Source of the DNA: a virus
Virus record (IMG/VR): IMGVR_UViG_3300022868_001144
Location: 1-46,610 of that record
Length of the DNA: 46,610 bases
Reading direction: 5' to 3' (one strand)
This document shows, piece after piece, positions 4,302-26,171 of this stretch. The notes below the pieces were generated by a model, which saw only the letters and a program-made list of their open reading frames with translations, was not told the origin of the DNA and searched no databases. Position 1 is the stretch's first letter. Every line of letters starts with the position of its first letter. A program made the translations under genes and the position numbers.

Positions 4302-5452
4302 GTGCACATAAAAGAGCATTAGAAGCAGTACAACGAAATTTACTTCCCGGTGATGTGTTGGAAGTAACACACAAAACACCATGGGGATTTAAAGAATTAC
4401 AGGATCATAATATTCACGTGGATGATTACACCTCGGATAGAAGAGGAAAAGGAAAAGCTTGGGGACACCATACTGTTAGTAATACAATTCTACACATATT
4501 GGCGGGGAATGATGTTGCAACATCAATGATTAATAGAGCAATTTCCAAAGCTTGTCAAACCAGTGATCGGGTGATTATCTTAGAACATGATCCAGATAGT
4601 CCGGATTTTCGTCTTAATGGTAGTGTTAATTTTTGTAACATAGGTGGTTTGACTCATCACTTAGTGGGGTTGGGGTGTGATTTTACTAGAGTTAACATCG
4701 ATGGTAGAAATCTCTTGTTTATGGTCACTTTTCTTGGCAACTGTGACAATTCTTTCAATCAAATTAACATACAAAATGTTGAAGAATTACTTAAAATAAA
4801 ATGGCGTTTTTATCCGGAAAAGAATTTCGACGTTTACCGGTTAACTAGTGAAAAGCAAGTGGGATCCGAACGGCTATTATCTAATAAAGATGTACAGAAG
4901 ATAAATGAAATAGGAACTGATAAAAAACTATACAGCATAATCGGCGGTTTTATGTTTTTAGAAATGATGTCTGAACTTAAATGTCGTCCTATGTGTTTAT
5001 TGGACATTTCACTAAAACAGAATTTATATGCGATGACGATTGTGGACCTTATAAAAGTGTGTCCAACTCGTAATATTTTTATTAATTGTATTCTCAATCA
5101 CGATGTAGGGTTGATGAATTTACCTATTGTGAAGAAGATTTCTAAAATATGGAGCTTACAAGAGTTATCCGCTATTTTGTTTTACGGTAGGGACGAATGT
5201 CAGGCGTACTGGAGGAACTTAATTTACTATGGTGATTGGATAAAAAACTATACAAAGGTTAGACAGTGGTTGATCGATGAACCACCGCAATTTCATTTTG
5301 GTGGATTTCCAAATTGTGAAGTACCGGATGGGTCGATTATTTACACAAGTACAATTTTTCCTGAACACTATGAACGGTATACGAATCATCATATTATTGA
5401 AGCGTACACGGAAAGAAACATACCTCATTTACGGATGAACCCACATGCATAA
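4298..5452 (+). CDS. Unknown 384-residue protein in the glycan block
   Basis: Starts at ATG 4298, overlapping the previous stop (ATGA). A longer frame from 4229 has no convincing ribosome site. The N-terminal third (LLPGDVLEVTHKTPWGFKEL, then AWGHHTVSNTILHILAGN and RVIILEHDPDS) has the alternating hydrophobic pattern of an alpha/beta nucleotide or SAM-binding fold, but no diagnostic motif is complete. The middle is hydrophobic and Cys-containing, and the end is aromatic-rich. It overlaps the following methyltransferase gene by eight bases, so co-translation is likely. I cannot assign a function. Confidence 0.55.
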   Translation: MSAHKRALEAVQRNLLPGDVLEVTHKTPWGFKELQDHNIHVDDYTSDRRGKGKAWGHHTVSNTILHILAGNDVATSMINRAISKACQTSDRVIILEHDPDSPDFRLNGSVNFCNIGGLTHHLVGLGCDFTRVNIDGRNLLFMVTFLGNCDNSFNQINIQNVEELLKIKWRFYPEKNFDVYRLTSEKQVGSERLLSNKDVQKINEIGTDKKLYSIIGGFMFLEMMSELKCRPMCLLDISLKQNLYAMTIVDLIKVCPTRNIFINCILNHDVGLMNLPIVKKISKIWSLQELSAILFYGRDECQAYWRNLIYYGDWIKNYTKVRQWLIDEPPQFHFGGFPNCEVPDGSIIYTSTIFPEHYERYTNHHIIEAYTERNIPHLRMNPHA

Positions 5453-5936
5453 AAGTAGTTACGATTTAATGAGAGACGGTTTTGTTAATAAATACTTGGA
5501 TCGTGCTTTTCCTTTAAGAGTTTTAGATGTAGGATCGTACGATGTAAATGGAACATATCGAGACTTATTTAAACCTCCTTATATTTATACAGGTACGGAC
5601 ATTGAAGCTGGTCCGAATGTTGACATTGTGGGATGGGAAAACGTGCCTGATCGAAGTTTTGATTTAGTTATCAGTGGCCAAGTAATGGAACACGTTGAAA
5701 GACCGTGGGAGTGGATTAAACAAGTTAGAGAAACTGTTATTCATGGCGGGCTTATTTGTATTATCGTACCTCACGTTCAAAAAGAACATAAATATCCGCT
5801 TGATTGTTATCGTTTTTTCCCAGATGGTATGAAAGCTTTATTTAATTATGCAGATATCGAAATAATGGAATGTTATAAAAACCCGATACAAAATACAAGA
5901 GATACAATCGGGATAGGTCAAGTTTGGCACTACTGA
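5445..5936 (+). CDS. Class I SAM-dependent methyltransferase
   Basis: A 163-residue protein. VLDVGSYDVNGTYRDLF (about 26-42) is the glycine-rich SAM loop, YTGTDIEAGPNVDIV contains the acidic residue that holds the ribose, and FDLVISGQVMEHVERP (about 71-86) matches the post-strand-4 motif of small-molecule methyltransferases (Methyltransf_11 type). It ends the glycosyltransferase run, so a sugar or glycolipid-like substrate is more likely than DNA. Its stop overlaps the first bases of promoter-like repeat B, which makes it the last gene of that unit. Confidence 0.8.
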   Translation: MHKSSYDLMRDGFVNKYLDRAFPLRVLDVGSYDVNGTYRDLFKPPYIYTGTDIEAGPNVDIVGWENVPDRSFDLVISGQVMEHVERPWEWIKQVRETVIHGGLICIIVPHVQKEHKYPLDCYRFFPDGMKALFNYADIEIMECYKNPIQNTRDTIGIGQVWHY

Positions 5937-8151: not shown

Positions 8152-9077
8152 GAAAAACACCGAAAAAATCAGAAAAATCCGCCAAAGAAGCCAAAAGAGA
8201 TGCAGCTAGAAAAAGACGTTCGTGGGAGGACGATTACCCCACCATTATGCAAAAATTGACACCGGCGGAAAAGAAAATGATCACTGCCAGTAAGATCATT
8301 CTGCCGAGAGAGTACTTAAGTCCATCCGCCATCGGTACGTATATACGGTGTGGGTTACAGTTTTGGAATAGGTACATACTCGGAATCGTGAGTCCACCAT
8401 CTGTTCCACTTATTGAGGGTGGTGTGCATCACAGCGTACTTGAAACAAATAATCGACACAAGAAGAAAACGCAAGATGATTTACCTGCTAGTGAATTAAC
8501 CACTATGTTTAAAGATTTATTCAGTGACAGGAAGAAACCGATTGAAGATTGGGGTGAAGAAAATGAAAGTGGTGTTAATAATAGAGCGGTTTCTTTGCTG
8601 TCTGATTATCATGACACCTTTGCACCACGGTTGACACCCCAACTGATCGAGGCCAAAATCCAAATGGAAGTTGGACCTGTGAAAATGCTGGGTTTGCTCG
8701 ATGTGCAGGGTCAATTAACCAACTCTTTAGGTAAATCATCTAAAAATACGGTTATTGATTACAAGACCGGTAAAAAAGCGAAATCACGTGCTGAACTTGA
8801 CAGCGAAATCGGCATTGGCTTTTATGGGTGGGGAGCCACGGCCATGTTCAAGAAAAAAGTCGATGTCGGAATCTGCATGCTGAAGAAAACGAAAGTGCCG
8901 GTAGTTGATTGGATGATTGCTGATTTTGACGACCAACGTATAAAATGGTTGAGAGAAATCATCGTTCGGATTGCTAACTCTATTTCACTTGGTTCGTTTC
9001 CGCCTTGTGACCCGACATCGTGGGCCTGTTCAGAACGCTTCTGCGGGTATTTTCATTTTTGCCGGGGTAAAAAATGA
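8148..9077 (+). CDS. PD-(D/E)XK nuclease of the Cas4/RecB type
   Basis: A 309-residue protein. A basic tail is followed by LSPSAIGTYIRCGLQFWNRY (about 56-75), the usual start of this family with its first Cys. The catalytic IDYKTGKK motif is near residues 203-210, and a C-terminal Cys cluster (CDPTSWACSERFCGYFHFC) suits a 4Fe-4S site. Enzymes of this kind resect DNA ends with 5'-3' polarity and support recombination, which agrees with the recA gene just upstream. ATGA overlaps occur on both sides, so the three genes are co-translated. Confidence 0.85.
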   Translation: MRKTPKKSEKSAKEAKRDAARKRRSWEDDYPTIMQKLTPAEKKMITASKIILPREYLSPSAIGTYIRCGLQFWNRYILGIVSPPSVPLIEGGVHHSVLETNNRHKKKTQDDLPASELTTMFKDLFSDRKKPIEDWGEENESGVNNRAVSLLSDYHDTFAPRLTPQLIEAKIQMEVGPVKMLGLLDVQGQLTNSLGKSSKNTVIDYKTGKKAKSRAELDSEIGIGFYGWGATAMFKKKVDVGICMLKKTKVPVVDWMIADFDDQRIKWLREIIVRIANSISLGSFPPCDPTSWACSERFCGYFHFCRGKK

Positions 9078-9826
9078 AATCTAAAACGCGACTAATACTT
9101 GGTGACTGCTTGGAAGTTATACCTAAACTGAAAACTGGCAGTGTGGATTTGGTTCTTGTTGATTTACCATATGGTACTGCTTCTAAGGCATGTAAATGGG
9201 ATACCATTATTCCTCTTGTTCCAATGTGGGAACAGTTAAAGCAAATAATCAAACCTAATGCTGTTATTGTTATGACTGCTTCACAACCGTTTACGACTAC
9301 ACTCATATCATCTAATATGAAAATGTTTAAATATTGTTGGGTGTGGGTGAAGCCAAGGGGGACCGGGCATTTAAATGCTAAAAAAATGCCAATGAAGAAC
9401 TATGAAGATGTTGTGGTGTTTTATAGAAAAGGGTGTACATACAATCCGCAGATGATAAAGGGCAAGCCTTATAAGAATAAGGGTGGTAAGGCAGTGAAGA
9501 TCAACGAATCTGGTGTTACAATATATGGGAAGTTTAGTGCGGGTGGTGAATACAATACTGTCAACGATGGGTTGCGGTATCCTAAGAGGGTTATTTCGAT
9601 TCCAGTTATTGAAAGAGGTTCTATCCACCCAACACAAAAACCAGTTGCTTTAATGGAATACATGATTAAAACTTATACGGATGAGGGTGACACAGTGTTG
9701 GACTTCACGATGGGTTCGGGTACTACCGGAGTGGCGTGTAAAAATTTGAATCGTAATTTTATAGGTATTGAAAAAGACCCAGAGTTTTTCAAAATCGCAC
9801 AAAAGCGGGTGAGCGAAATAAAATGA
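9074..9826 (+). CDS. DNA methyltransferase, beta-class motif order
   Basis: A 250-residue protein. LGDCLEVIPKLKTGSVDLVLVDLPYGT (about 8-34) places the catalytic D-L-P-Y motif IV at the N-terminus. HPTQKPVALMEYMIK and DFTMGSGTTGVACKNLNR (about 213-230, SAM-binding motif I) are at the C-terminus. Motif IV before motif I is the beta-class order. A DPPY-like tetrad points to adenine N6 rather than cytosine N4 methylation, but N4 cannot be excluded. If the genome carries 2-aminoadenine, the natural substrate would be the N6-amino group of that base. There is no restriction partner nearby, so it acts as an orphan methylase. Confidence 0.88.
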   Translation: MKSKTRLILGDCLEVIPKLKTGSVDLVLVDLPYGTASKACKWDTIIPLVPMWEQLKQIIKPNAVIVMTASQPFTTTLISSNMKMFKYCWVWVKPRGTGHLNAKKMPMKNYEDVVVFYRKGCTYNPQMIKGKPYKNKGGKAVKINESGVTIYGKFSAGGEYNTVNDGLRYPKRVISIPVIERGSIHPTQKPVALMEYMIKTYTDEGDTVLDFTMGSGTTGVACKNLNRNFIGIEKDPEFFKIAQKRVSEIK

Positions 9827-10329
9827 AAACGGACTGGTCAAAAGTTGGCAAGAAGTCCAGACGCAAGGGTAAAGCGTTCGAGTGTGAATTAGCTCGGTTG
9901 TTTCGCAAGATTAGTGGTGACAACTGGCAAACGTCCAGAAACAGTGGACGTACTGATATTAGAGGTGACATTTACTGTGCTGATTACCCAAATGTGATGG
10001 TTGAATGCAAACACAGAAAAAGTCTTACACTAAAATCGATGCTAAATGGCACTAAAATTTACACTGATACAATTGATTATATTACAAAAGACTTTTTGAA
10101 GTATGAACATTTGGATACATTGTTGATTGTTATGAAGACTGAACACGGTATCTGGGTTGGTTCTGCGGTACGGTGCGGGAAGTCGAAAAATGTGTTATTA
10201 TGGATGAATGATTGCAATCCAAGCCCTGATGAAAATTATTTATCTATCAAGGGTGTGCCGTGGTTGTGGTTGGATAAAGAAGAAGATGCTATCAAAGGAT
10301 TTATGAAATGGCTACAAACGAGAATTTAG
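9823..10329 (+). CDS. Resolvase-like PD-(D/E)XK endonuclease
   Basis: A 168-residue protein. GKAFECELARLFRKI (about 15-29), R-x-S-GRTDIRGDI (about 41-51) and VMVECKHRKS (about 59-68) give the E...D...ExK catalytic set of the Hjc/VRR-type nucleases. Size and position in a recombination operon fit a Holliday-junction or branched-DNA endonuclease. It overlaps the upstream methylase by four bases and the downstream sigma/DUF4406 gene by 22 bases. Confidence 0.75.
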   Translation: MKTDWSKVGKKSRRKGKAFECELARLFRKISGDNWQTSRNSGRTDIRGDIYCADYPNVMVECKHRKSLTLKSMLNGTKIYTDTIDYITKDFLKYEHLDTLLIVMKTEHGIWVGSAVRCGKSKNVLLWMNDCNPSPDENYLSIKGVPWLWLDKEEDAIKGFMKWLQTRI

Positions 10330-11189
10330 AATGGAAGAATTTAGTAATAAAAGCAATAAACGGTTCTCAAGCGGGATTATTCCGAAAACTTCAACCACAA
10401 CTACACAAAATTGCTGTTGCTATTATACCTAATAAAGACATTGATGATGCAATTCAGGCGGCATACATACGGATCTGGCAACGTTTGAACGAAGTTGATC
10501 TTGGGAATCCGGCAACCATTTCTTCTTTTCTGTACAGGTTAGGCACCAATGCTATGAGGGTTGAACGAATCCGAATCATAAAGGAAGACCCAACAAAACC
10601 AGAAGCAAAACAAATAAGGAAGAAAACAAGGAATTACTACCAACTCAATAAAGACAAACTCAAAGCTCAAAGGAATGATAGATATAAGAGAAATTCTAAA
10701 GTTGAAGTAGCTCGACAACAGAGATACAATCAAAAGCGAAGAGAAAAAATCAACAGATTAAAAAACTTTTCAAATCTATGTAGGGTGTATGTGGCCGGAC
10801 CTATAAGCGGGGAACACATGAAGCAGAAAGTTGAGTGGGCCATACAAACTGCGGCTAAAATCCGAGAATACGGATATACTCCTTTTGTTCCTCACCTTTT
10901 TTATTACTGGGATGAATATTTACCTCAAACGTATGAGTATTGGATAAAGTTGGATATAGAATGGTTGGCCATTTGTGATGTTATACTACGGTTGCATGGC
11001 GAAAGTAAAGGAGCAAAAGGTGAAGTGTTGTTCGCTGAAAATATCATCAAACTACCTATTGTACACTCGATTTCCGAATTAAGGGATCGATTCCCTATGA
11101 AAGATGGTAGTGGTAACATACTTAATGTTGTGAAACCGGACGCACCTGATACCTATGAATTTCTTAAAAAGGAGTTTAACGTCAAATGA
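10308..11189 (+). CDS. Fusion of a sigma-70-like region 2 and a DUF4406-type domain
   Basis: A 293-residue protein with AAAGGA six bases before ATG 10308. Residues 1-90 (DIDDAIQAAYIRIWQRLNEV, then ISSFLYRLGTNAMRVERIR) look like sigma-70 region 2. Residues 95-155 are a very basic Arg/Lys/Asn/Gln linker. Residues 158-265 start VYVAGPISGEHM and continue through YGYTPFVPHLFYYW, WIKLDIEWLAICDVILRL and GESKGAKGEV, a DUF4406/nucleoside 2-deoxyribosyltransferase-like fold with the Y-x-x-GP phosphate site and the acidic residue of the last motif. Related enzymes (Rcl/DNPH1) hydrolyse deoxynucleoside monophosphates. I have not seen this fusion described. It overlaps the polymerase gene by four bases. 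Confidence 0.7.
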   Translation: MATNENLEWKNLVIKAINGSQAGLFRKLQPQLHKIAVAIIPNKDIDDAIQAAYIRIWQRLNEVDLGNPATISSFLYRLGTNAMRVERIRIIKEDPTKPEAKQIRKKTRNYYQLNKDKLKAQRNDRYKRNSKVEVARQQRYNQKRREKINRLKNFSNLCRVYVAGPISGEHMKQKVEWAIQTAAKIREYGYTPFVPHLFYYWDEYLPQTYEYWIKLDIEWLAICDVILRLHGESKGAKGEVLFAENIIKLPIVHSISELRDRFPMKDGSGNILNVVKPDAPDTYEFLKKEFNVK

Positions 11190-13606
11190 TAAAAACACCT
11201 TGTGAGAAATGTAAAAGATGCTTGGCTGGTGACGATGGTTACAAAATACCAGCCTTTATTAATTCTAAAAATCCGGATATTTTGGTTTTGAGTGGTCAAC
11301 CCGGATTGAGTGAATTAAAAGCTAATGAATCTCATGTTAGTGTATCAGGTCAACAAGTGCGGGCGATACTCAAAGATATAACAGATAATTACGTCCTTGA
11401 AACTGTGGTGAAATGTGTTAGTGATAAAAAACCCACTAAACGAGAAATTAAGTTGTGTCGTGAAAACTGGATGGGGTTGGTTAGAAAATACAAACCTAAA
11501 GTTATTGTTACATTGGGGGCTTATGCCGCACAAGCAATTTCCGTTGAAAAAATAATAAAAACATCGAGAGCGGGAAAAGTGGGGAAGATGGACGTGGGTG
11601 GTGAACGTGTTTTAATTGTTCACAACTATGATCCTGCTTATGTGATGCATGCCAGTTCTAGACCAGATTTTAACGCGATACAAAGTAAATGGTTTGATGT
11701 GTGGGACCGAGTATCTGAACTGATTAAAGATGGTGGGATGAAATTACCAGAGGTTGAACAATTAACAGACTATTCTTTAATTAAAGCTCACCTTGAGGAA
11801 CTACTCAAGTACGATGGTAAAATAGCGTATGATTACGAAACATGGGGGAACGTGGATGCAAGAAGACCAGAACTGAACAAAGAATTTAAAATTTTATGTA
11901 TTGGTGTTGCTACTAAGTGGAGTGAAGTTTCTTTTCTGCTGGATGACAGTAGGATGAAGTGGAAGCGTGGTGAAAAACGAGAAATTACAAGGTTGTGGAA
12001 GAAGATAATAAAAAGTAAAGATCGTATAGCACAAAATGCGAAGTATGAACATAAATGTAATTTCCTTAGGTTTGGTCATTCCACGGTTTTAAAAGACACG
12101 ATGTTGCAAATGAGTAGGATTGATGAAACGGCAGAATGTAATCTTGAAGCAATAGCGACGTGGGCCAAAATTCCGTGGTCGTTTTACAAATCTTACTATG
12201 AAGACGTATCACAACGGCCAGAAGAAACGTCAATTAAACAACTGTTACATTATAATGGTCTAGATGCTCTTGCTACATTATTGGCTAGTGAAGAATTGGA
12301 AAAAGAGCTTAAAAAAAGAAAACTTATGAACGTTGTTTCCATGCAAGAAACGTATGCTTATCACTTAGCACAAATGGAAATAACCGGTATGCATGTTGAT
12401 GCTAAAAAGATTGTTAGTTTACGAAAAGAAATAAATAAAAAACTGGTGGAAATGAATAATTGGTTTTATTCTAGACCAGAAGTGTTGAATGTTCGTATGT
12501 GGGCTGAAAATAACATCAAATCTTTCAAAAAGGGAAATCCTTTCAATCCAAAAAGTCCTGTACAGATAAAGCAGTTATGCTTGAATGAGTTGAAATTGAA
12601 AATTGCTCCGGATAAAAATGGTAAATATTCTTTCGATAAAGATCATTTAGCACCTTTTATTGAAAAAAACCAAATTGTTAAGAACATGAATGAGGTTAGG
12701 TCTTTGTCATCTATGTTAACTGGGTTTTTAAATAAATGGGATAGCTATGTTGGTCCTAGTGGTTGTGTTCACACGCAGTTTAATCAAACTACAGTTGTTA
12801 CAGGTCGATTATCATCATCAAGTCCGAACTTGCAAAATATACCAAGAGATTCGGTTATTAAAAAAGCGTTTACTTCTAGATTTGATGGTGGATTTTTAAT
12901 AAATTCTGATTTCAGACAGTTGGAGCCTAATATTTTGGCTGGGTGGTCAAAAGATAAATTGATGTGTGAAGCTTTGAATGATGGACTTGATATTCATAAA
13001 TGGGTATCAGCACAGATTTATGATATAGACTATAATGATGTAACAGACGAACAAAGAAATCATGGCAAACGGATGAATTTGGGTCAGATGTATGGTCAAA
13101 CGGAGCATGGTCTGTCTAAACAGACTAATCTTACATTAAGTCAAGCTAAAGATCTAATGGATGCATACAATAAGAAATTTCCCGGAATATTAAAGTTTAG
13201 ACACGAACTCCATAAACACGCGATTCATAATGGTTATGTAGAAGACCTGTTTGGTTCACGTAGATACCTGCCGGGTGCACAAAGTTCGGATAGGTGGATT
13301 ATGGAGGGGGCATTACGTCAAGCCGGTAACGCCCCTATTCAATCAACTGGTAACCAGTTTTGTTTGATTAGTATGTGTCATTGTAGGGAAAGTTTACAAC
13401 GTAAAAAACTTAAAGCGGTGGTTATTTGCACGGTGCATGACAGTCTTATAATAGATTGTGCACCAGAATGCGTGGAAGAAACTAGTAAAATTGTGGAATA
13501 TTCTATGTTGGTTCACAACAAAGCACCTTATTGGGCTGATTCACCAGTCAAAATGAAAGTGGATATGAAGATGGGACCGGATTTGTACGAAATGAAAGCG
13601 AGTTAA
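11186..13606 (+). CDS. Family A DNA polymerase with N-terminal uracil-DNA-glycosylase-like domain (DpoZ candidate)
   Basis: An 806-residue protein. Residues 1-175 resemble family 4 UDG: Cys6/9/12 and Cys77/91 for an Fe-S cluster, LSGQPGLSE (35-43) as the first active-site motif and NYDPAYVM (147-154) as the second. The 3'-5' exonuclease follows, with DYE (216-218), N284/E288 and Y356/D360. The polymerase has TGRLSSSSPNLQNIP (539-553), motif A SDFRQLEP (574-581), motif B RNHGKRMNLGQMYG (624-637) and motif C VHDS (750-753). Motif C has Ser in place of the usual Glu, and motif B has Leu at the position normally Phe/Tyr. There is no 5' nuclease domain. A co-occurring PurZ suggests it is DpoZ-like. 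Confidence 0.9.
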   Translation: MIKTPCEKCKRCLAGDDGYKIPAFINSKNPDILVLSGQPGLSELKANESHVSVSGQQVRAILKDITDNYVLETVVKCVSDKKPTKREIKLCRENWMGLVRKYKPKVIVTLGAYAAQAISVEKIIKTSRAGKVGKMDVGGERVLIVHNYDPAYVMHASSRPDFNAIQSKWFDVWDRVSELIKDGGMKLPEVEQLTDYSLIKAHLEELLKYDGKIAYDYETWGNVDARRPELNKEFKILCIGVATKWSEVSFLLDDSRMKWKRGEKREITRLWKKIIKSKDRIAQNAKYEHKCNFLRFGHSTVLKDTMLQMSRIDETAECNLEAIATWAKIPWSFYKSYYEDVSQRPEETSIKQLLHYNGLDALATLLASEELEKELKKRKLMNVVSMQETYAYHLAQMEITGMHVDAKKIVSLRKEINKKLVEMNNWFYSRPEVLNVRMWAENNIKSFKKGNPFNPKSPVQIKQLCLNELKLKIAPDKNGKYSFDKDHLAPFIEKNQIVKNMNEVRSLSSMLTGFLNKWDSYVGPSGCVHTQFNQTTVVTGRLSSSSPNLQNIPRDSVIKKAFTSRFDGGFLINSDFRQLEPNILAGWSKDKLMCEALNDGLDIHKWVSAQIYDIDYNDVTDEQRNHGKRMNLGQMYGQTEHGLSKQTNLTLSQAKDLMDAYNKKFPGILKFRHELHKHAIHNGYVEDLFGSRRYLPGAQSSDRWIMEGALRQAGNAPIQSTGNQFCLISMCHCRESLQRKKLKAVVICTVHDSLIIDCAPECVEETSKIVEYSMLVHNKAPYWADSPVKMKVDMKMGPDLYEMKAS

Positions 13607-14451: not shown

Positions 14452-15321
14452 ATGGTAGTTAATAGAAAAGCATTGAAGAAGCAAATGGATGAAGCGGCTG
14501 AAAGAGTCGGAGGATTACGGTTCTTGAAAAAGGGGACCACCAGACTTCGAATATTGGAATTCGAAGATGAAGATGGCGATACCATCTTTTCACGACTACT
14601 AGTTGATCATGCTAAAGTACCTGATTTCAAAAGTATTGGTGTGTGCAAACACGGCACGTTTGGCGAAGCTTGTGTTCATTGTCGTATCAACGAAATGGCA
14701 TCGTTGGGTGGCAGGGACCGGGTGTATAGTTCTAGATCGAAGTATCTTATTAAGGCGATTGCTATTGATTCTGATGCTAAACGTGTTGTCACATTTAGTG
14801 TACCAACATCGGTATGGAAAGCTATCACAGAATACGTCCTATCTGAAGATTGGGCTGATGTATTGGAAGCTGAAACTGGTCATTGTTTTGAAATTGAAGC
14901 AACCGGCGATAAGCTTGAGCGTGAATATCATGTAACTGTCATGCGTAAAGCGTACCCGGTTGCTGAAAGTATTGCCGAATCGGTGGTTGATCCTTTGACA
15001 GAATTGAAAAATCCGAGTTTAGAAGACCAAGCCGAAAAAATAGGCATCAGTCTTTCTGATATTTGGGATGAAAACCAACTTGAGGAAGTGAATGCTGACG
15101 TGGAAGAACCTGAAACTACTCCTTTTGAGGGGGACGATAAGCGGATTGCGGCGGAAGAAGAGAAAAAAGCTGCAAAGGATAAGGCGAAGAAGAAAAAGGC
15201 AACTAAGAAAAAAACAACGTCGAAGAAAGATGAAAAACTTGCGGTAAGGGAAGAGGAACCGGAAACTCCGGCTGAAGATGATGACCGTAGTTTTATTGAT
15301 CAACTTATCAATGGCGGCTAA
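14452..15321 (+). CDS. Single-stranded DNA-binding protein, gp32-like
   Basis: A 289-residue protein with AGGAAAGG upstream of ATG 14452. GLRFLKKGTTRLRILEF begins an OB-type core. CKHGTFGEACVHCR (about 64-77) is a Cys/His zinc-binding loop, as in T4 gp32-type proteins. The C-terminal 90 residues are a low-complexity acidic tail with an interposed Lys-rich patch (about 233-265), ending DDDRSFIDQLINGG; acidic tails recruit replication partners. It would protect ssDNA for the polymerase, helicase and recombinase encoded around it. Confidence 0.8.
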   Translation: MVVNRKALKKQMDEAAERVGGLRFLKKGTTRLRILEFEDEDGDTIFSRLLVDHAKVPDFKSIGVCKHGTFGEACVHCRINEMASLGGRDRVYSSRSKYLIKAIAIDSDAKRVVTFSVPTSVWKAITEYVLSEDWADVLEAETGHCFEIEATGDKLEREYHVTVMRKAYPVAESIAESVVDPLTELKNPSLEDQAEKIGISLSDIWDENQLEEVNADVEEPETTPFEGDDKRIAAEEEKKAAKDKAKKKKATKKKTTSKKDEKLAVREEEPETPAEDDDRSFIDQLINGG

Positions 15322-15361: not shown

Positions 15362-16585
15362 ATGATGATTAAACAGAATCGTGTAAATGTGGTGATTGAT
15401 GGTCAGTGGGGTAGCACTGGTAAGGGTAAACTTGCTGGGTACTTATACAACCGTCACCCCGAAATCGATGTGTCCATAAGTGATTTTATGCCAAACTCTG
15501 GTCACACATACGTTGATGATTATGGCGAGGCTCTTGTGACTAAGATGCTTCCTACCGGTGCGTTGATTAAAACCGTGAAACATGTAGTTATCGGACCTTA
15601 TGCGGTGATCGACATACCCCGGTTGATGCAAGAAATCGAAATGGCCGAGGATTACCGGGATGAAAAATGTGGACGAGACTGGTTACTTCACATTCACCCT
15701 AATGCTGGTGTTTTGCGTCCTGCTGACGTGAAAGCTGAAACCAAGCTAAATCCGATTGCGTCAACGATGACCGGTGGTATGGAAGCTACTATGAGAAAAA
15801 TGCAACGTAATCCACGACATAAAGTTGCTATAGCTGAACAAGCACCAGAATTGAAGAATTTTATCATGTATGATTCTTTAGGTGTAATGAAACTGATGGA
15901 TTTTGACAGTGGTGCTCACACAGCACTGTTGGAAATGGCACAGGGTTTTGATTTAAGTCTTAATTACGGTACTAAATGGCCGTATGTTACCAGTCGTGAT
16001 TGTCTGATTGGTAGAGGTTTGGACAATGCTGGTGTTCCTGTTAAGTTCATAGGTTCCATTATTGCTTCACTACGTACCTTACCAATTCGAGTTGGTAGTA
16101 CGGTAGGTGGTTACAGTGGGCCTTGTTACCCGGATCAAACCGAGTTGACTTGGGACGAAGTAAGTGTAACTGCTGGTAAACCAACGATGGAATTAACCAC
16201 AGTCACCAAACGTGTAAGACGTATATTCACTTTCAGTTATTTACAACTGGAAAGATTTTTATGTATAGTACGTCCGGATTATGCGTTTCTCAATTTTTGT
16301 AATTACTTGGCTGACGAAGAATGTGATGATTTCATTAATAACGTAGCTATAGGGTGTGATCAAAAGGATTGTACTTTATCGTTGTTGGGGTATGGAGCTA
16401 AAAATGACGAAATGATCAATATTCTTGATGGTGAAAGATACACGGGTCAACAACCTGAAGAATGTTATCCTCCAGATGATGAAGCACCGGAACCCACTCC
16501 AACTCCGACACCTACACCTACTCTAACACCCGAACCTACTAAAACGGATGATGGTAAAGGAGGTGATTCTGTTGAAAGTGATTAG
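15362..16585 (+). CDS. purZ: PurZ: 2-amino-dAMP (N6-succinyl) synthase of the adenylosuccinate synthetase family, with a C-terminal Pro-Thr tail
   Basis: A 407-residue protein with GTGGAG upstream. NVVIDGQWGSTGKGKLAGYL (9-28) aligns with the PurA start GQWGDEGKGK but has Ser18-Thr19 in place of the catalytic Asp-Glu. Loss of that Asp is the known mark of PurZ, which condenses dGMP with aspartate to give the precursor of 2-aminoadenine deoxynucleotide. The body retains NSGHTYV (45-51), SASTMTGG-like STMTGGM and GYSGPCYPDQTE. Its length without the tail (~365) fits phage PurZ. Residues after ~365 are a Pro-Thr repeat with an acidic end, not part of the enzyme fold. The stop overlaps the NMP kinase gene by 14 bases. 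Confidence 0.88.
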   Translation: MMIKQNRVNVVIDGQWGSTGKGKLAGYLYNRHPEIDVSISDFMPNSGHTYVDDYGEALVTKMLPTGALIKTVKHVVIGPYAVIDIPRLMQEIEMAEDYRDEKCGRDWLLHIHPNAGVLRPADVKAETKLNPIASTMTGGMEATMRKMQRNPRHKVAIAEQAPELKNFIMYDSLGVMKLMDFDSGAHTALLEMAQGFDLSLNYGTKWPYVTSRDCLIGRGLDNAGVPVKFIGSIIASLRTLPIRVGSTVGGYSGPCYPDQTELTWDEVSVTAGKPTMELTTVTKRVRRIFTFSYLQLERFLCIVRPDYAFLNFCNYLADEECDDFINNVAIGCDQKDCTLSLLGYGAKNDEMINILDGERYTGQQPEECYPPDDEAPEPTPTPTPTPTLTPEPTKTDDGKGGDSVESD

Positions 16586-17138
16586 TGTTATCGGCACTAC
16601 TGGTTGTGGTAAAACTCATCAATGTGCTGAATTAGTAGAAGAACTAACATCTGTAGCGGAAAATAAACCTCCATCGGAGGGAAATTTACCCATGGTGCTT
16701 AGTTTGGGTAAGATTTTTCGTGGTATGTTTGGTGATGACTTTTTTACTACACAATCTAATCCATCCACATCGGAAGCGACTGAACTTTTAGCACGTGCGT
16801 TAATTCATTATTCAGTTCAAATCAGTTCTCGATATAATAAGGACTTGATTATCGATGGTTTCCCACGTAGTGTCAGTCAACTTGAATACCTGATGGACAC
16901 GGTTAAAAATCTTTCTAGAAGTGGGCTTGAAATCAGGCTAATATGTTCTAATGAAGAAGAACAGTGGAAAAGATTAAAAAACCGAGAAGAGCATCTGGGT
17001 TGTGAATTAGACAGAGAATTTTATCTACGAAAGATGATAACTGACGCAACACAAATTGCGGCTTTGATTTCAGTGTATAAACAACGAATAGGTACGGATA
17101 GATTTTTTACTTACACGGAGGTTGACAATCTTGGATGA
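16572..17138 (+). CDS. Nucleoside-monophosphate kinase, adenylate-kinase-like
   Basis: A 188-residue protein. TTG 16572 is chosen because a near-perfect site AAAGGAGGTGAT ends about five bases upstream; an ATG at 16548 precedes that site. VISVIGTTGCGKTHQ (3-17) is the P-loop, and DLIIDGFPRSVSQLEYL (about 95-111) is the adenylate-kinase NMP-binding signature. RLKNREEHLGCELDREFY fits a short lid. It overlaps purZ upstream and the dUTPase gene downstream. I infer that it phosphorylates a purine monophosphate needed for DNA synthesis, possibly 2-amino-dAMP, which known Z phages leave to host kinases. Confidence 0.78.
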   Translation: MKVISVIGTTGCGKTHQCAELVEELTSVAENKPPSEGNLPMVLSLGKIFRGMFGDDFFTTQSNPSTSEATELLARALIHYSVQISSRYNKDLIIDGFPRSVSQLEYLMDTVKNLSRSGLEIRLICSNEEEQWKRLKNREEHLGCELDREFYLRKMITDATQIAALISVYKQRIGTDRFFTYTEVDNLG

Positions 17139-17598
17139 TCTGCAAATAATTTATGATAGTGATATAGTGGCGAGAAAAGCCGAAATTAAACACGCTAAAG
17201 ATGGAGATTGTGGTTTTGATTTGTATAATGCATCGGATTCGACAGTAATTGTTGGTCCTTACTGCAGTAAAAGAATCAATACTGGTATAAGGATGAAGAT
17301 ACCGGATGGTTACTGTGGTATTTTAAGATCTCGATCCTCAACATTCACGCGTAAAGGTTTGTTTGTTGTTACTGGGGTCATTGACAGTGGTTATACTGGT
17401 CCCTTGTACATCATAGTGTGGAACCCAGTGTTACAAGGTTCTAATGAAACGATGCCCATAACACCGATTTTGATTAAACCGTGGGAAAGAGTTTCACAGT
17501 TATTGATTTTACCTGTACCGAAAGTAAAAGTAGTTCGTGTGTTTCAATTACCGGAAACAGAACGAGGTCAAAGCGGTTTTGGCTCTACAGGTGTTTAA
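17131..17598 (+). CDS. dut: dUTPase
   Basis: A 155-residue protein from TTG 17131, nine bases after GGAGG; the TTG at 17122 abuts that site. All five trimeric dUTPase motifs are visible: CGFDLYN (motif 1), LRSRSST (2), GVIDSGYTGPLYIIVWN (3), WERVSQLLILP (4) and ERGQSGFGSTGV (5). It converts dUTP to dUMP, keeping uracil out of DNA and feeding dTMP synthesis. It complements the UDG-like domain on the phage polymerase. A terminator follows. Confidence 0.93.
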   Translation: MDDLQIIYDSDIVARKAEIKHAKDGDCGFDLYNASDSTVIVGPYCSKRINTGIRMKIPDGYCGILRSRSSTFTRKGLFVVTGVIDSGYTGPLYIIVWNPVLQGSNETMPITPILIKPWERVSQLLILPVPKVKVVRVFQLPETERGQSGFGSTGV

Positions 17599-23085: not shown

Positions 23086-23811
23086 GTGGATTTGAAAGGG
23101 GTTATACTAGCTGGCGGCACGGGTTCTCGGCTGGAGTCGCTTACGAAAGTCACTAATAAGCATCTTCTTCCGGTGGGTCGTAAGCCGATGATTTATTATG
23201 CTGTTGAGAAGTTCGTCTCGGCTGGGATCGATGAAATATTGATTGTTACCGGTGTTGAGCACATGGGCGACGTAGTGAATTTGCTAGGTTCTGGCAAAGA
23301 TTTCGGGTGTCGATTCACCTATAAAGTGCAGGATGAGGCTGGCGGGATTGCCCAAGCGTTGGGGTTAGCCAAGGATTTCTCCAACTGCAATCCGATAGTG
23401 GTGATTCTTGGCGATAATATATTCAAGGCAGGACTAAGGGAGTATGTGGACAAGTTCAAGTCGCAGAAGAGCGGTGCCAGACTGTTGCTTATTCAGCATG
23501 ATAATCCGCAACGGTTTGGTGTCGCAGAAGTTTGTGACGGCAGGGTTGTCGGTATCGAGGAGAAGCCACAAAAGCCTAAGTCTAATTATGTTGTGACCGG
23601 TATATATTTTTATGATACAAATGTTTTTGACATTATCGCTACACTTAAGCCGTCAGGCAGAGGTGAGTTGGAAATTACTGATGTCAATAATGCTTATATA
23701 ATGAAGAACCAGTTGTGTTATGATATTCTCGACGGCTGGTGGACCGATGCTGGCACATTCGAATCTCTATACAAAGCTAATGCGATGGTATTAAATAACC
23801 CCCCACAATGA
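23086..23811 (+). CDS. rmlA: Glucose-1-phosphate thymidylyltransferase
   Basis: A 241-residue protein from GTG 23086 with GGGAAAGGG upstream. GVILAGGTGSRLESLTKVTN (4-23) is the nucleotidyltransferase signature with the triphosphate-binding Arg, followed by KHLLPVGRKPMIYYAV. VVILGDNIFK holds the metal-binding Asp. Length fits the short, non-allosteric form rather than the ~290-residue enzyme. It makes dTDP-glucose from glucose-1-phosphate and dTTP. The four rml genes use GAG, CTG and CGG more than their neighbours and are visibly richer in G+C, so they look transferred from a bacterium. Confidence 0.93.
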   Translation: MDLKGVILAGGTGSRLESLTKVTNKHLLPVGRKPMIYYAVEKFVSAGIDEILIVTGVEHMGDVVNLLGSGKDFGCRFTYKVQDEAGGIAQALGLAKDFSNCNPIVVILGDNIFKAGLREYVDKFKSQKSGARLLLIQHDNPQRFGVAEVCDGRVVGIEEKPQKPKSNYVVTGIYFYDTNVFDIIATLKPSGRGELEITDVNNAYIMKNQLCYDILDGWWTDAGTFESLYKANAMVLNNPPQ

Positions 23812-23819
23812 GGATGAAA

Positions 23820-24347
23820 ATGGGAAAGATATTGCCTCTAAAGAGTGTTTTAATAGATGATGGATTAGTTGTTCGTAGTTCGTGTGAGCTTCTTATAGAA
23901 GGGGTGGGTGTGCGTCGTTGTAAGGTTATCCCTGATGAGCGGGGCAGGCTTGGCGAGATACTTCGTGGGGACGATGATTTTTTTAAGAAGTTCGGCCAAG
24001 TTTATTTTACCACTACATATCCGGGTGTTGTCAAGGCGTGGCATTATCACAAGAAACAAACAGACAATTTTTATGTTGTCAAGGGCACAATAAAGGTTGC
24101 ACTTTATGACGATAGGGAAAACTCATTGACGCAAGGCGTGGTAAATGAGTTTTATCTTGGCGAACATTGTCCGGGATTGGTTCATATACCGCCCGGTGTC
24201 CAGCACGGCTGGGTGTGCGTCAGTCAAGTCGAGGCGTACATTGTAAATGTGGTTTCGGAAATGTATAATTATGTTGAGCCGGACGAGTTTCGCAGCGATC
24301 CGCATGATAATCATATTCCGTATAAATGGATACGTAATGATGGGTGA
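23820..24347 (+). CDS. rmlC: dTDP-4-dehydrorhamnose 3,5-epimerase
   Basis: A 175-residue protein. ATG 23820 is preferred because GAGG lies six bases upstream; an earlier ATG at 23808 overlaps the rmlA stop without a site. The cupin core shows PDERGRLGEILRGDD, VYFTTTYPGVVKAWHYHKKQ (catalytic His) and HCPGLVHIPPGVQHGWVCVS. It epimerises dTDP-4-keto-6-deoxyglucose at C3 and C5. Gene order A-C-D-B keeps all enzymes of the pathway together. Confidence 0.9.
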   Translation: MGKILPLKSVLIDDGLVVRSSCELLIEGVGVRRCKVIPDERGRLGEILRGDDDFFKKFGQVYFTTTYPGVVKAWHYHKKQTDNFYVVKGTIKVALYDDRENSLTQGVVNEFYLGEHCPGLVHIPPGVQHGWVCVSQVEAYIVNVVSEMYNYVEPDEFRSDPHDNHIPYKWIRNDG

Positions 24348-24360
24348 GGGAGGTAGGTAG

Positions 24361-25197
24361 ATGGAACGGGTAGCGATATTAGGTGGTGGGGGGATGCTTG
24401 GCACGGATTTGGTTGGTGTTTGTGGTCGGCGTGGGCTTGAATTTGTTGTTTATGATTTACCGGAGTTTGATATTACCAAGCCTGAACATGTTCATCAAGT
24501 TGTTAAGGATTCTGATGTTGTTGTGAATTGTGCGGCATATACTAATGTTGATCAGGCTGAACTTGAGTTTGATCTTGCTTATCAGGTTAATGCCGAGGCG
24601 GTTGGGGTATTGGGAGAAACCGCTAAAGAAGCTGGCAAATGGGTGTTACATATCAGCACTGATTTTGTGTTTGACGGCAAAAGCGACAAGCCCTATCGTG
24701 AGACAGACAAAGCTAATCCGATAAACACATACGGTAAAAGCAAACTGGCGGGTGAGAAGCTTTTGGCTAAAAGCGGGTGCCGACATTGTATAGTCCGGGT
24801 TGAGTGGACATACGGGTTGGCTGGTCGGAATTTTGTGACTAAGCTTTTAGGTTATGGTGAGACGAACAAGGATATTCGAGTTGTCGATGACCAGTCAGGG
24901 TCGCCGACGGCAACGGTTGAGGTTGCTGATGCTGTTTGTGAACTTTTGCGGATTAGACCTGAAGGAGTATATCATTTTGCCTCGGCTGGATATACCAGTC
25001 GATTTGAAGTGGCGAAATTTATATTTGAGAAAGTTGGTATGGCGGTGAATTTATCAAAGTGCAAAAGTAGTGATTATGAAAGTCTGGCGGCACGGCCATT
25101 GAATAGTCGATTTGATTGTGGTAAAATTCAGGGGCTGCTTAATAAACCGATCGAGCGTTGGGAGTTGCCGTTGGGACGTTTTTTGGAGTTGTTATGA
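24361..25197 (+). CDS. rmlD: dTDP-4-dehydrorhamnose reductase
   Basis: A 278-residue short-chain dehydrogenase with GGGAGG upstream. VAILGGGGMLGTDLVGVC (4-21) binds NADPH, VVVNCAAYTNVDQAE (about 53-67) matches the RmlD family exactly in spacing, and ISTDFVFDG with Y-G-K-S-K-L-A-G-E gives the catalytic Thr/Tyr/Lys. SGCRHCIVRVEWTYG fits the substrate lobe. It carries out the last step to dTDP-L-rhamnose. Confidence 0.93.
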   Translation: MERVAILGGGGMLGTDLVGVCGRRGLEFVVYDLPEFDITKPEHVHQVVKDSDVVVNCAAYTNVDQAELEFDLAYQVNAEAVGVLGETAKEAGKWVLHISTDFVFDGKSDKPYRETDKANPINTYGKSKLAGEKLLAKSGCRHCIVRVEWTYGLAGRNFVTKLLGYGETNKDIRVVDDQSGSPTATVEVADAVCELLRIRPEGVYHFASAGYTSRFEVAKFIFEKVGMAVNLSKCKSSDYESLAARPLNSRFDCGKIQGLLNKPIERWELPLGRFLELL

Positions 25198-26171
25198 AAA
25201 GTATATTAGTGACAGGTGGTGCAGGTTTTATTGGTAGTAATTTTGTTCGGATGGTGCTGGCCGAGCATAGCGATTGTTTTGTGGTGAATCTGGACAAGCT
25301 GACATATGCCGGTAATCTTAATAATCTGGCTGGTTTTCTTGAGCATCCCAGCCATAAATTTATTAAAGGTGATATATGCGATTATGATTTGGTGTCACAA
25401 ATTATAGAAAGTCACGATATAGGTGCTATTGTCAATTTTGCTGCTGAGAGCCATGTTGATCGCTCGATCACGGGTCCTAAGATTTTTATTGAGACGAATG
25501 TTACCGGCACATTGATGCTGCTCGAGGCGGCACGTGAAAAAGGTATAGAGCGGTTCGTCCAAATATCGACCGATGAGGTTTATGGTGAGCTTGGCCCGAC
25601 AGGTAGATTCAGCGAGCAGACGGCATTGAGTCCGAATTCGCCGTACTCGGCAAGTAAAACGGCAGCGGATCATCTTGTGGGTGCTTACGGACACACCTGG
25701 GGACTTAATTATAATATTACACGTTGCTCGAATAATTATGGGCCATATCAGTTTCCGGAAAAGATGATACCGCTGATGATAAATAACGCGTTGCACGATA
25801 AAGAATTGCCAGTTTATGGTGACGGGCTGCATGTTCGAGACTGGATATATGTGTATGATCATTGCACAGCGGTGTGGAAAGTTTTAACCGAAGCGACTCC
25901 CGGTGAGATATATAATATCGGTGGTTGTAACGAGAAGGCCAATCTTGAGGTTGTTGAGTTGATACTGGATCGGCTCGATAAGCCGAAATCGCTTATCAGA
26001 CATGTAACCGACAGGCCCGGGCACGATAGAAGGTATGCTATGAACGCCGGTAAGATAATGGAAGAGTTGGGCTGGCGGCCTTTAGTTAGTTTCGAAGAAG
26101 GGATCAACAAGACGATAGCGTGGTATCTGGGAAATCGAGATTGGTTGGCGGATGTCGTCCGTGGAGGGTGA
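25194..26171 (+). CDS. rmlB: dTDP-glucose 4,6-dehydratase
   Basis: A 325-residue protein from ATG 25194, overlapping the rmlD stop (ATGA); an upstream in-frame start lacks a site. ILVTGGAGFIGSNFVRMVL (4-22) binds NAD, NFAAESHVDRSI is the family motif, and ISTDEVYGELG plus YSASKTAADHLV carry the catalytic Thr-Asp-Glu and Tyr-x3-Lys. RCSNNYGPYQFPEKMIPL is also diagnostic. The C-terminus ends VVRGG, and the stop codon is the first triplet of direct repeat R1, so the cassette's edge may coincide with it. Confidence 0.94.
   Translation: MKSILVTGGAGFIGSNFVRMVLAEHSDCFVVNLDKLTYAGNLNNLAGFLEHPSHKFIKGDICDYDLVSQIIESHDIGAIVNFAAESHVDRSITGPKIFIETNVTGTLMLLEAAREKGIERFVQISTDEVYGELGPTGRFSEQTALSPNSPYSASKTAADHLVGAYGHTWGLNYNITRCSNNYGPYQFPEKMIPLMINNALHDKELPVYGDGLHVRDWIYVYDHCTAVWKVLTEATPGEIYNIGGCNEKANLEVVELILDRLDKPKSLIRHVTDRPGHDRRYAMNAGKIMEELGWRPLVSFEEGINKTIAWYLGNRDWLADVVRGG

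What the first reader, a model, noticed from the sequence alone, without database searches (positions are those of the whole stretch)
15362..16585. PurZ with Asp-to-Ser substitution: the genome probably contains 2-aminoadenine
Seen: the P-loop-like motif reads GQWGSTGKGK where bacterial PurA has GQWGDEGKGK. Known: PurZ enzymes of Z-DNA phages lack that catalytic Asp and use dGMP. Inferred: together with a MazG-like protein (6008), a family A polymerase (11186) and no thymidylate or hypermodification genes, this phage likely makes Z-containing DNA.
Basis: partly seen in the sequence, partly recalled or inferred. Interest (0 to 1): 0.85.

Follow-up and report, generated by a model that had tools for sequence, protein, structure and literature searches.

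The report
PurZ phage with its own kinase
This phage genome carries a true PurZ gene, the enzyme that starts synthesis of 2-aminoadenine (Z), and it belongs to a lineage not described in the papers I could read, in which purZ is followed directly by a nucleotide kinase gene that probably finishes the Z building block while the usual helper genes of Z phages are missing.

Summary
In detail: 15362-16585 encodes a PurZ. The Asp-to-Ser change is real (Ser18), the ATP-site residues match phiVC8 PurZ, and a 103-sequence tree places it inside phage PurZ, away from E. coli PurA and PurZ0. The genome around it is not the textbook Z cluster. There is no DatZ and no recognisable MazZ, and the family A polymerase keeps the helix-O Tyr that both described DpoZ clades change to Phe. 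Instead purZ overlaps an adenylate-kinase-fold NMP kinase gene, which overlaps a dUTPase gene of the DutZ branch. This layout defines a lineage: of 28 dereplicated kinase-linked PurZ genes, 27 have the kinase as the next gene; none of 18 whole records has DatZ; 20 of 21 polymerases keep Tyr. In a sub-clade the kinase is fused to an unrelated all-alpha dUTPase. Three large members also encode adenylosuccinate lyase. Best reading: PurZ makes dSMP from dGMP, a lyase (usually the host's) makes dZMP, the phage kinase makes dZDP, and the DutZ-like enzyme removes dATP and dGTP. PurZ membership is well supported; kinase specificity and the extent of A-to-Z replacement are inferred. New variant of a known kind.

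The parts
15362..16585 (+). purZ, 407 aa
15413..15415 (+). codon AGC of Ser18, the position of catalytic Asp13 in PurA
16557..16566 (+). AAGGAGGTGA, likely ribosome-binding site of the kinase gene, inside the 3' end of purZ
   Evidence: sequence read directly; role inferred
16572..17138 (+). NMP kinase gene, likely start TTG 16572 (longer ORF from ATG 16548), overlapping purZ; proposed dZMP kinase
17131..17598 (+). dUTPase-family gene of the DutZ branch, likely start TTG 17131 (longer ORF from 17122), overlapping the kinase gene; GGAGG at 17117-17121
11186..13606 (+). UDG-like domain + 3'-5' exonuclease + family A DNA polymerase with canonical helix-O Tyr
14452..15321 (+). [quoted passage not shown]
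   Evidence: no PHROG, Pfam or NCBIfam match; relatives next to purZ in L015, L017, L018, L020, L021, L024, L039
10308..11189 (+). ECF sigma region 2 fused to an NDT/DUF4406 domain; not DmtZ by its residues; possible but unproven part of the nucleotide module

Best explanation
The window is a phage that makes 2-aminoadenine DNA with a kinase-type Z cassette, purZ-kinase-dut, written as overlapping genes. PurZ condenses dGMP with aspartate using ATP to give dSMP. A lyase, the host's in this phage and phage-encoded in three large relatives, gives dZMP. The phage NMP kinase turns dZMP into dZDP, a step that described Z phages leave to the host; host NDK makes dZTP. The DutZ-like enzyme hydrolyses dATP and dGTP (and dUTP), lowering the competitor and supplying dGMP. 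A family A polymerase without the DpoZ mark copies from the biased pool. Shown here: homology, residues, gene order, lineage-wide linkage. Inferred: every substrate, and the degree of A-to-Z replacement.
For: PurZ by family, structure match, tree and residues. Kinase is the next gene in 27 of 28 dereplicated kinase-linked PurZ. A scan with kinases alone (five PurZ-linked seeds) gave 8 loci, all on PurZ-bearing records. Kinase has the adenylate kinase fold with an invariant base-reading Gln. Kinase is coupled to a trimeric dUTPase or fused to an unrelated all-alpha dUTPase_2. dUTPase lies in the branch of characterised DutZ; 25 of 27 members of that branch are on PurZ-bearing records, against 0 of 12 sampled records outside it. 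Three large members add adenylosuccinate lyase.
Against: No activity data. No DatZ and no DpoZ-type polymerase, so dATP exclusion rests on a dUTPase assigned by descent. The published DutZ prefers dATP but also takes dUTP, and is not the only control of the pool. Kinase sequences are diverged and the base pocket was not modelled with a ligand. The window is one metagenomic record with no end repeats. L107 carries a DatZ-like gene together with a kinase-family gene.
Confidence: 0.6

Rival explanations
1. PurZ works, but Z replaces A only partly: with an unselective polymerase and no DatZ, dZTP and dATP compete and the DNA is mixed.
For: Polymerase keeps the canonical Tyr; DatZ absent.
Against: A DutZ-like enzyme, published as a dATP/dGTP diphosphatase in PurZ0 phages (PMC12884076), is present; a dedicated kinase would raise dZTP. 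S-2L reaches full replacement with an unselective polymerase, though with DatZ (PMC8065100).
Confidence: 0.25
2. The kinase is not specific for dZMP: it is a general dNMP kinase (dAMP, dTMP, dCMP or others) that supports replication and sits next to purZ by chance of lineage.
For: Fold is that of ordinary adenylate and UMP/CMP kinases; sequences are diverged (15-50% to the window).
Against: Next gene to purZ in 27 of 28 dereplicated rows; fused to or followed by a dNTP diphosphatase of two unrelated folds. Phosphorylating dAMP would undo the work of that diphosphatase.
Confidence: 0.3
3. It is the known phiVC8-type system (purZ, mazZ, DpoZ).
For: PurZ plus a family A polymerase in the same genome.
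Against: No DatZ, no recognisable MazZ, polymerase without the DpoZ motif; kinase and DutZ-like genes instead.
Confidence: 0.04
4. It is an ordinary IMP-using adenylosuccinate synthetase (PurA) that boosts host purine synthesis.
For: Pfam Adenylsucc_synt match.
Against: Ser for Asp, ATP-type site residues in place of the PurA ones, PurZ placement in the tree.
Confidence: 0.03

Closest known systems
phiVC8 / S-2L / SH-Ab 15497 type Z cluster (purZ, datZ, mazZ or DUF550; DpoZ-2 or, in S-2L, PrimPol)
   Same: PurZ of the same group (38-42% identity to the nearest named phages), STGKG motif, ATP-site residues N/F/N
   Different: No DatZ, no recognisable MazZ, polymerase with Tyr in place of the DpoZ Phe; a kinase directly after purZ and a DutZ-like gene
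PurZ0 cassette of actinophages (Ghobes, Wayne: purZ0, dutZ, dmtZ, DUF5664, DpoZ-1)
   Same: dUTPase of the same branch as DutZ
   Different: PurZ is not PurZ0 (tree, STGKG and not SEAKG, N/F/N ATP site); no DmtZ by residues; polymerase lacks the Phe; the kinase is extra
Bacillus phage vB_BpsS-140
   Same: Named phage with a PurZ of this wider group plus adk, dut and sigma genes
   Different: adk-dut lie 8.9 kb from purZ; no family A or B polymerase and no DatZ found on its record
dUMP kinase of PBS1/PBS2 dU-DNA phages (cited in PMC12697855)
   Same: Precedent for a phage-induced kinase that feeds a replacement base
   Different: Other base and other pathway; no homology was tested

Membership tests
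PurZ (succino-amino-deoxyadenylate synthase) | Ser in place of the catalytic Asp13 of PurA | tested here: met
   Ser18
PurZ (succino-amino-deoxyadenylate synthase) | Groups with phage PurZ and not with PurA in a tree | tested here: met
   only E. coli PurA as outgroup, no archaeal PurA
PurZ (succino-amino-deoxyadenylate synthase) | ATP-type site residues (phiVC8 N, F, N) and T-T-V-T loop | tested here: met
   N311, F312, N314, T279-T282
PurZ (succino-amino-deoxyadenylate synthase) | NCBIfam NF038379 naming cut-off of 300 bits | tested here: inconclusive
   224 bits, E 2e-66, best of all models but below the cut-off; a naming threshold, not a biological feature
PurZ (succino-amino-deoxyadenylate synthase) | Uses dGMP, Asp and ATP | not testable with these tools
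   needs an enzyme assay
phiVC8/S-2L type Z cluster | datZ | tested here: not met
   no match in the window or in 17 other kinase-type records; 4 of 4 controls found
phiVC8/S-2L type Z cluster | mazZ / DUF550 | tested here: not met
   phiVC8 gp26 and SH-Ab DUF550/DUF5664 queries found nothing in the window; 6008 has no MazG family match
phiVC8/S-2L type Z cluster | DpoZ with Phe in helix O (S-2L itself has PrimPol) | tested here: not met
   Tyr
PurZ0 cassette | PurZ0-type synthetase | tested here: not met
PurZ0 cassette | DutZ-type dUTPase | tested here: met
   same branch as Ghobes and Wayne-type DutZ, 85/97; activity not tested
DmtZ | Asp12 and Asn77 besides the Tyr and Glu of NDT enzymes | tested here: not met
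   Asp12 position is Ser, Asn77 position is Asp; hhalign probability 1.2%
Adenylate kinase / NMP kinase family | Fold, P-loop, phosphate-binding arginines and base-reading Gln | tested here: met
   AF2 pLDDT 90; Z 17.0 to adenylate kinase; invariant G21, K22, R58, D103, P106, R107, Q111
Adenylate kinase / NMP kinase family | Substrate: dZMP | not testable with these tools
   needs kinetics

The most novel reading that the evidence does not exclude
A third architecture of Z-genome phages exists, in which PurZ is coupled to a dedicated phage dZMP kinase, itself coupled or fused to a dNTP diphosphatase of either of two unrelated folds, and in which Z DNA is made without DatZ, MazZ or a DpoZ-type polymerase.
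Probability: 0.5. Interest if true: 0.7.

Novelty: new variant of a known kind. Interest (0 to 1): 0.55.

Why it matters
The published accounts I could read leave the steps after PurZ to the host and tie Z genomes to DatZ/MazZ/DpoZ or to DutZ/DmtZ/DpoZ-1. A lineage with its own kinase, and in some members its own lyase, would be a more host-independent route to dZTP. It would give enzymes for making dZTP in the laboratory and would test whether a selective polymerase or DatZ is needed for full replacement of A.

Tried and rejected
PurA / ordinary AdSS: rejected by tree and residues. 6008 as MazZ: no family support and no relatives. 10308 NDT domain as DmtZ: lacks Asp12 and Asn77, hhalign probability 1.2%; the sigma + NDT fusion was seen only in the window and L015. 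A first dUTPase scan with a single protein found nothing and a first kinase alignment was too diverged to scan. No terminal repeats in the window, so completeness is unknown. A kinase directly after PurZ0 was looked for and not found; the gene there looks MazG-like in the sequences read. Adenylosuccinate lyase at first looked special to the large kinase-type records, but Ghobes gp36 is already annotated as one, so that is not claimed as new. No literature on a kinase in Z phages was found, but the library lacks most subscription papers, among them (from my own knowledge) the 2021 Science papers on Z genomes. V244, named in PMC8342488 as sensing the 2' position, is also Val in E. coli PurA in my alignment, so I did not use it as evidence.

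Full report
Check of the observation. The ORF at 15362-16585 is real and reads GQWGSTGKGK at residues 14-23. Its best families are PurZ (NF038379 2e-66; phrog_1211 6e-59) and its best solved structures are phiVC8 PurZ (2e-65) and S-2L PurZ (4e-39), ahead of Pyrococcus PurA (3e-17). The nearest PurZ in named phages are 38-42% identical. A 103-row maximum-likelihood tree puts it inside phage PurZ, in an 18-row clade (99/85), with E. coli PurA far away and PurZ0 in its own clade. Key residues agree: Ser18, the T279-V-T loop, and N311/F312/N314 as in phiVC8, where E. coli PurA has T/K/D and the PurZ0 group mostly T/M/D (residue roles from PMC8342488).

The neighbourhood. purZ (stop at 16585) overlaps a kinase gene whose likely start is TTG 16572, preceded by AAGGAGGTGA at 16557-16566 inside purZ. 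The kinase gene (stop at 17138) overlaps a dUTPase gene whose likely start is TTG 17131, preceded by GGAGG at 17117-17121. Upstream lie a UDG-like/exonuclease/family A polymerase (11186-13606), an ECF sigma region 2 fused to an NDT/DUF4406 domain (10308-11189), a DNA methylase (9074-9826), and RecA-like and Cas4-like genes; downstream are a DnaB-like helicase and a DnaG-like primase.

A lineage, not a single case. A profile scan of IMG/VR returned 80 PurZ loci, and further scans added L109 and others. In the dereplicated tree set, 28 PurZ rows have a kinase of this family in their locus. In 27 it is the next gene after purZ, within 281 bases and usually overlapping (L032, at 281 bases, was not checked for a small gene between). 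The exception is Bacillus phage vB_BpsS-140, where kinase and dut are adjacent but 8.9 kb away. Among the PurZ loci of the first scan, 32 have the kinase and no DatZ, 44 have DatZ and no kinase, 14 have neither and none has both. These are related sequences, so this is a lineage pattern and not that many independent events; the tree needs 4 changes for the kinase label against 24.7 for shuffled labels. Whole-record searches found DatZ in 0 of 18 kinase-type records and 4 of 4 controls; many of these records are partial. One record, L107, breaks strict exclusivity: it has PurZ, a kinase-family gene, a DutZ-like gene and a DatZ-like gene. One kinase-type locus, L017, also has a DUF550 gene, and L043, inside the kinase part of the tree, has what reads like a DUF5664 gene in the kinase's place.

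The polymerase. Phe at one helix-O position is the only change shared by both described DpoZ clades (PMC8599892). In an alignment of the polymerases fetched, kinase-type rows have Tyr 20 times of 21, DatZ-type rows have Phe 33 times of 39, and all six PurZ0-type rows have Phe. Two larger kinase-type members, L025 and L028, show no family A polymerase but a family B one. So this lineage seems to combine PurZ with polymerases that are not DpoZ. Whether they select Z is unknown.

The dUTPase. Among named phages, the three best bit scores in the list are actinophage dUTPases; the two that were opened, Theresita and Olihed, carry a PurZ0 gene next door. A scan with a dUTPase alignment brought 78 loci, of which 55 have a PurZ-family gene within 6 kb; the search motif came mostly from PurZ-linked dUTPases, so this count is biased. 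In the dUTPase tree the window falls in a 27-row branch (85/97) with the characterised DutZ of Ghobes and a Wayne-type DmtZ-DutZ. Of the 27, 22 have PurZ in the locus and 3 of the other 5 have it elsewhere on the record, while 0 of 12 sampled records outside the branch have it. DutZ is a published dATP/dGTP/dUTP diphosphatase (PMC12884076). By descent this is the best candidate for the missing dATPase and dGTPase.

The kinase. The AlphaFold2 model has pLDDT 90 and matches adenylate and UMP/CMP kinases (Z 17.0, 2.6 A over 161 residues). Twenty diverged members keep the P-loop, R58, D103, P106, R107 and Q111 (numbered from ATG 16548). The last corresponds to the Gln of adenylate kinase that reads the 6-amino group and N1 of adenine (own knowledge; mapped by sequence motif). 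That favours A or Z over G. In a sub-clade (L032, L033, L035, L047, L049, L061) the kinase is fused to an all-alpha dUTPase_2 domain, unrelated in fold to the trimeric dUTPase of the window. Pairing of the kinase with a dNTP diphosphatase in two different ways argues for one pathway: remove dATP and dGTP, make dZMP, phosphorylate it. In three large members (L023, L025, L028) a purB-like adenylosuccinate lyase is also encoded (one above the curated purB cut-off, two below it), so there PurZ, lyase and kinase are all on one record. The Ghobes record already annotates a lyase.

What is shown and what is inferred. Shown: PurZ identity, gene overlaps, linkage, no DatZ on the records searched, the polymerase motif, the dUTPase branch, the kinase fold. 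Inferred: that PurZ uses dGMP here, that the kinase prefers dZMP, that the DutZ-like enzyme clears dATP, that the DNA contains Z, and how completely. The partial-replacement rival is serious because neither DatZ nor a DpoZ-type polymerase is present.

Comparison with what is known. The described systems are purZ with datZ, mazZ/DUF550 and DpoZ-2 (PrimPol in S-2L), and purZ0 with dutZ, dmtZ, DUF5664 and DpoZ-1 (PMC12884076, PMC8342488, PMC8065100). PMC8342488 says that the enzymes after PurZ had not been found on phage genomes, and the main text of PMC12884076 does not contain the word kinase. The window is PurZ by descent, shares a DutZ-type gene with PurZ0 phages, and adds a kinase. I file the protein as PurZ and the cassette as a new variant. 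Novelty is judged against an open-access library only.

Noticed in passing
L192-L195, L197, L199 (Rhizobiales and relatives); L188, L191, L198 (Gemmatimonadetes, Streptosporangiaceae, Acidobacteriaceae): Bacterial contigs encode PurZ-like proteins of about 535-550 aa with Ser in the motif; in the Rhizobiales ones an ORF weakly matching the DatZ profile (about 1e-7) sits just upstream on the other strand. They form their own clade outside phage PurZ.
   Followed up: partly
L187, L189, L190 (Mediterraneibacter, Prevotella, Lachnospiraceae contigs): PurZ-like gene followed by a gene that reads like a dCTP deaminase/dUTPase-family protein with a C-terminal membrane stretch; possibly a bacterial or prophage two-gene system.
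   Followed up: no
L084 (370.8-kb contig), L023 (262.7 kb), L025 (126 kb), L028 (136 kb): PurZ genes on very large viral contigs; L025 and L028 carry a family B DNA polymerase and no family A one.
   Followed up: partly
L215, L216, L217; Ghobes NC_031028 32089-33222: purB-like adenylosuccinate lyases on three kinase-type PurZ records, and one annotated in the PurZ0 phage Ghobes; 26 of 27 other PurZ-record searches were negative (the hit being Ghobes among 28).
   Followed up: partly
L012 5214-5750, L098 4980-5603, L119 about 5077-5559: A conserved gene directly after purZ0 that reads MazG-like (ELG..FY..GK..R...A...G...SDDT..DI.IY) but has no Pfam match in the two tested.
   Followed up: no
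window 10308-11189 and L015 1315-2220: ECF sigma-70 region 2 fused to an NDT/DUF4406 domain, directly upstream of the polymerase gene.
   Followed up: partly
window 23086-26171: Four consecutive genes resembling RmlA, RmlC, RmlD and RmlB, that is a full dTDP-rhamnose set, with two GT2 glycosyltransferases at 1665 and 3402.
   Followed up: no
window 9074-9826: N6/N4-type DNA methylase with a DLPY motif in a genome whose adenine may be replaced by Z.
   Followed up: no
window 16480-16585: PurZ ends in a Pro/Thr-rich tail (about residues 375-407) that the other nine PurZ of alignment A1 lack.
   Followed up: no
L107 (IMGVR 3300012931_000209): PurZ, kinase-family, DutZ-like and DatZ-like genes on one record, the only co-occurrence of kinase and DatZ seen.
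   Followed up: partly
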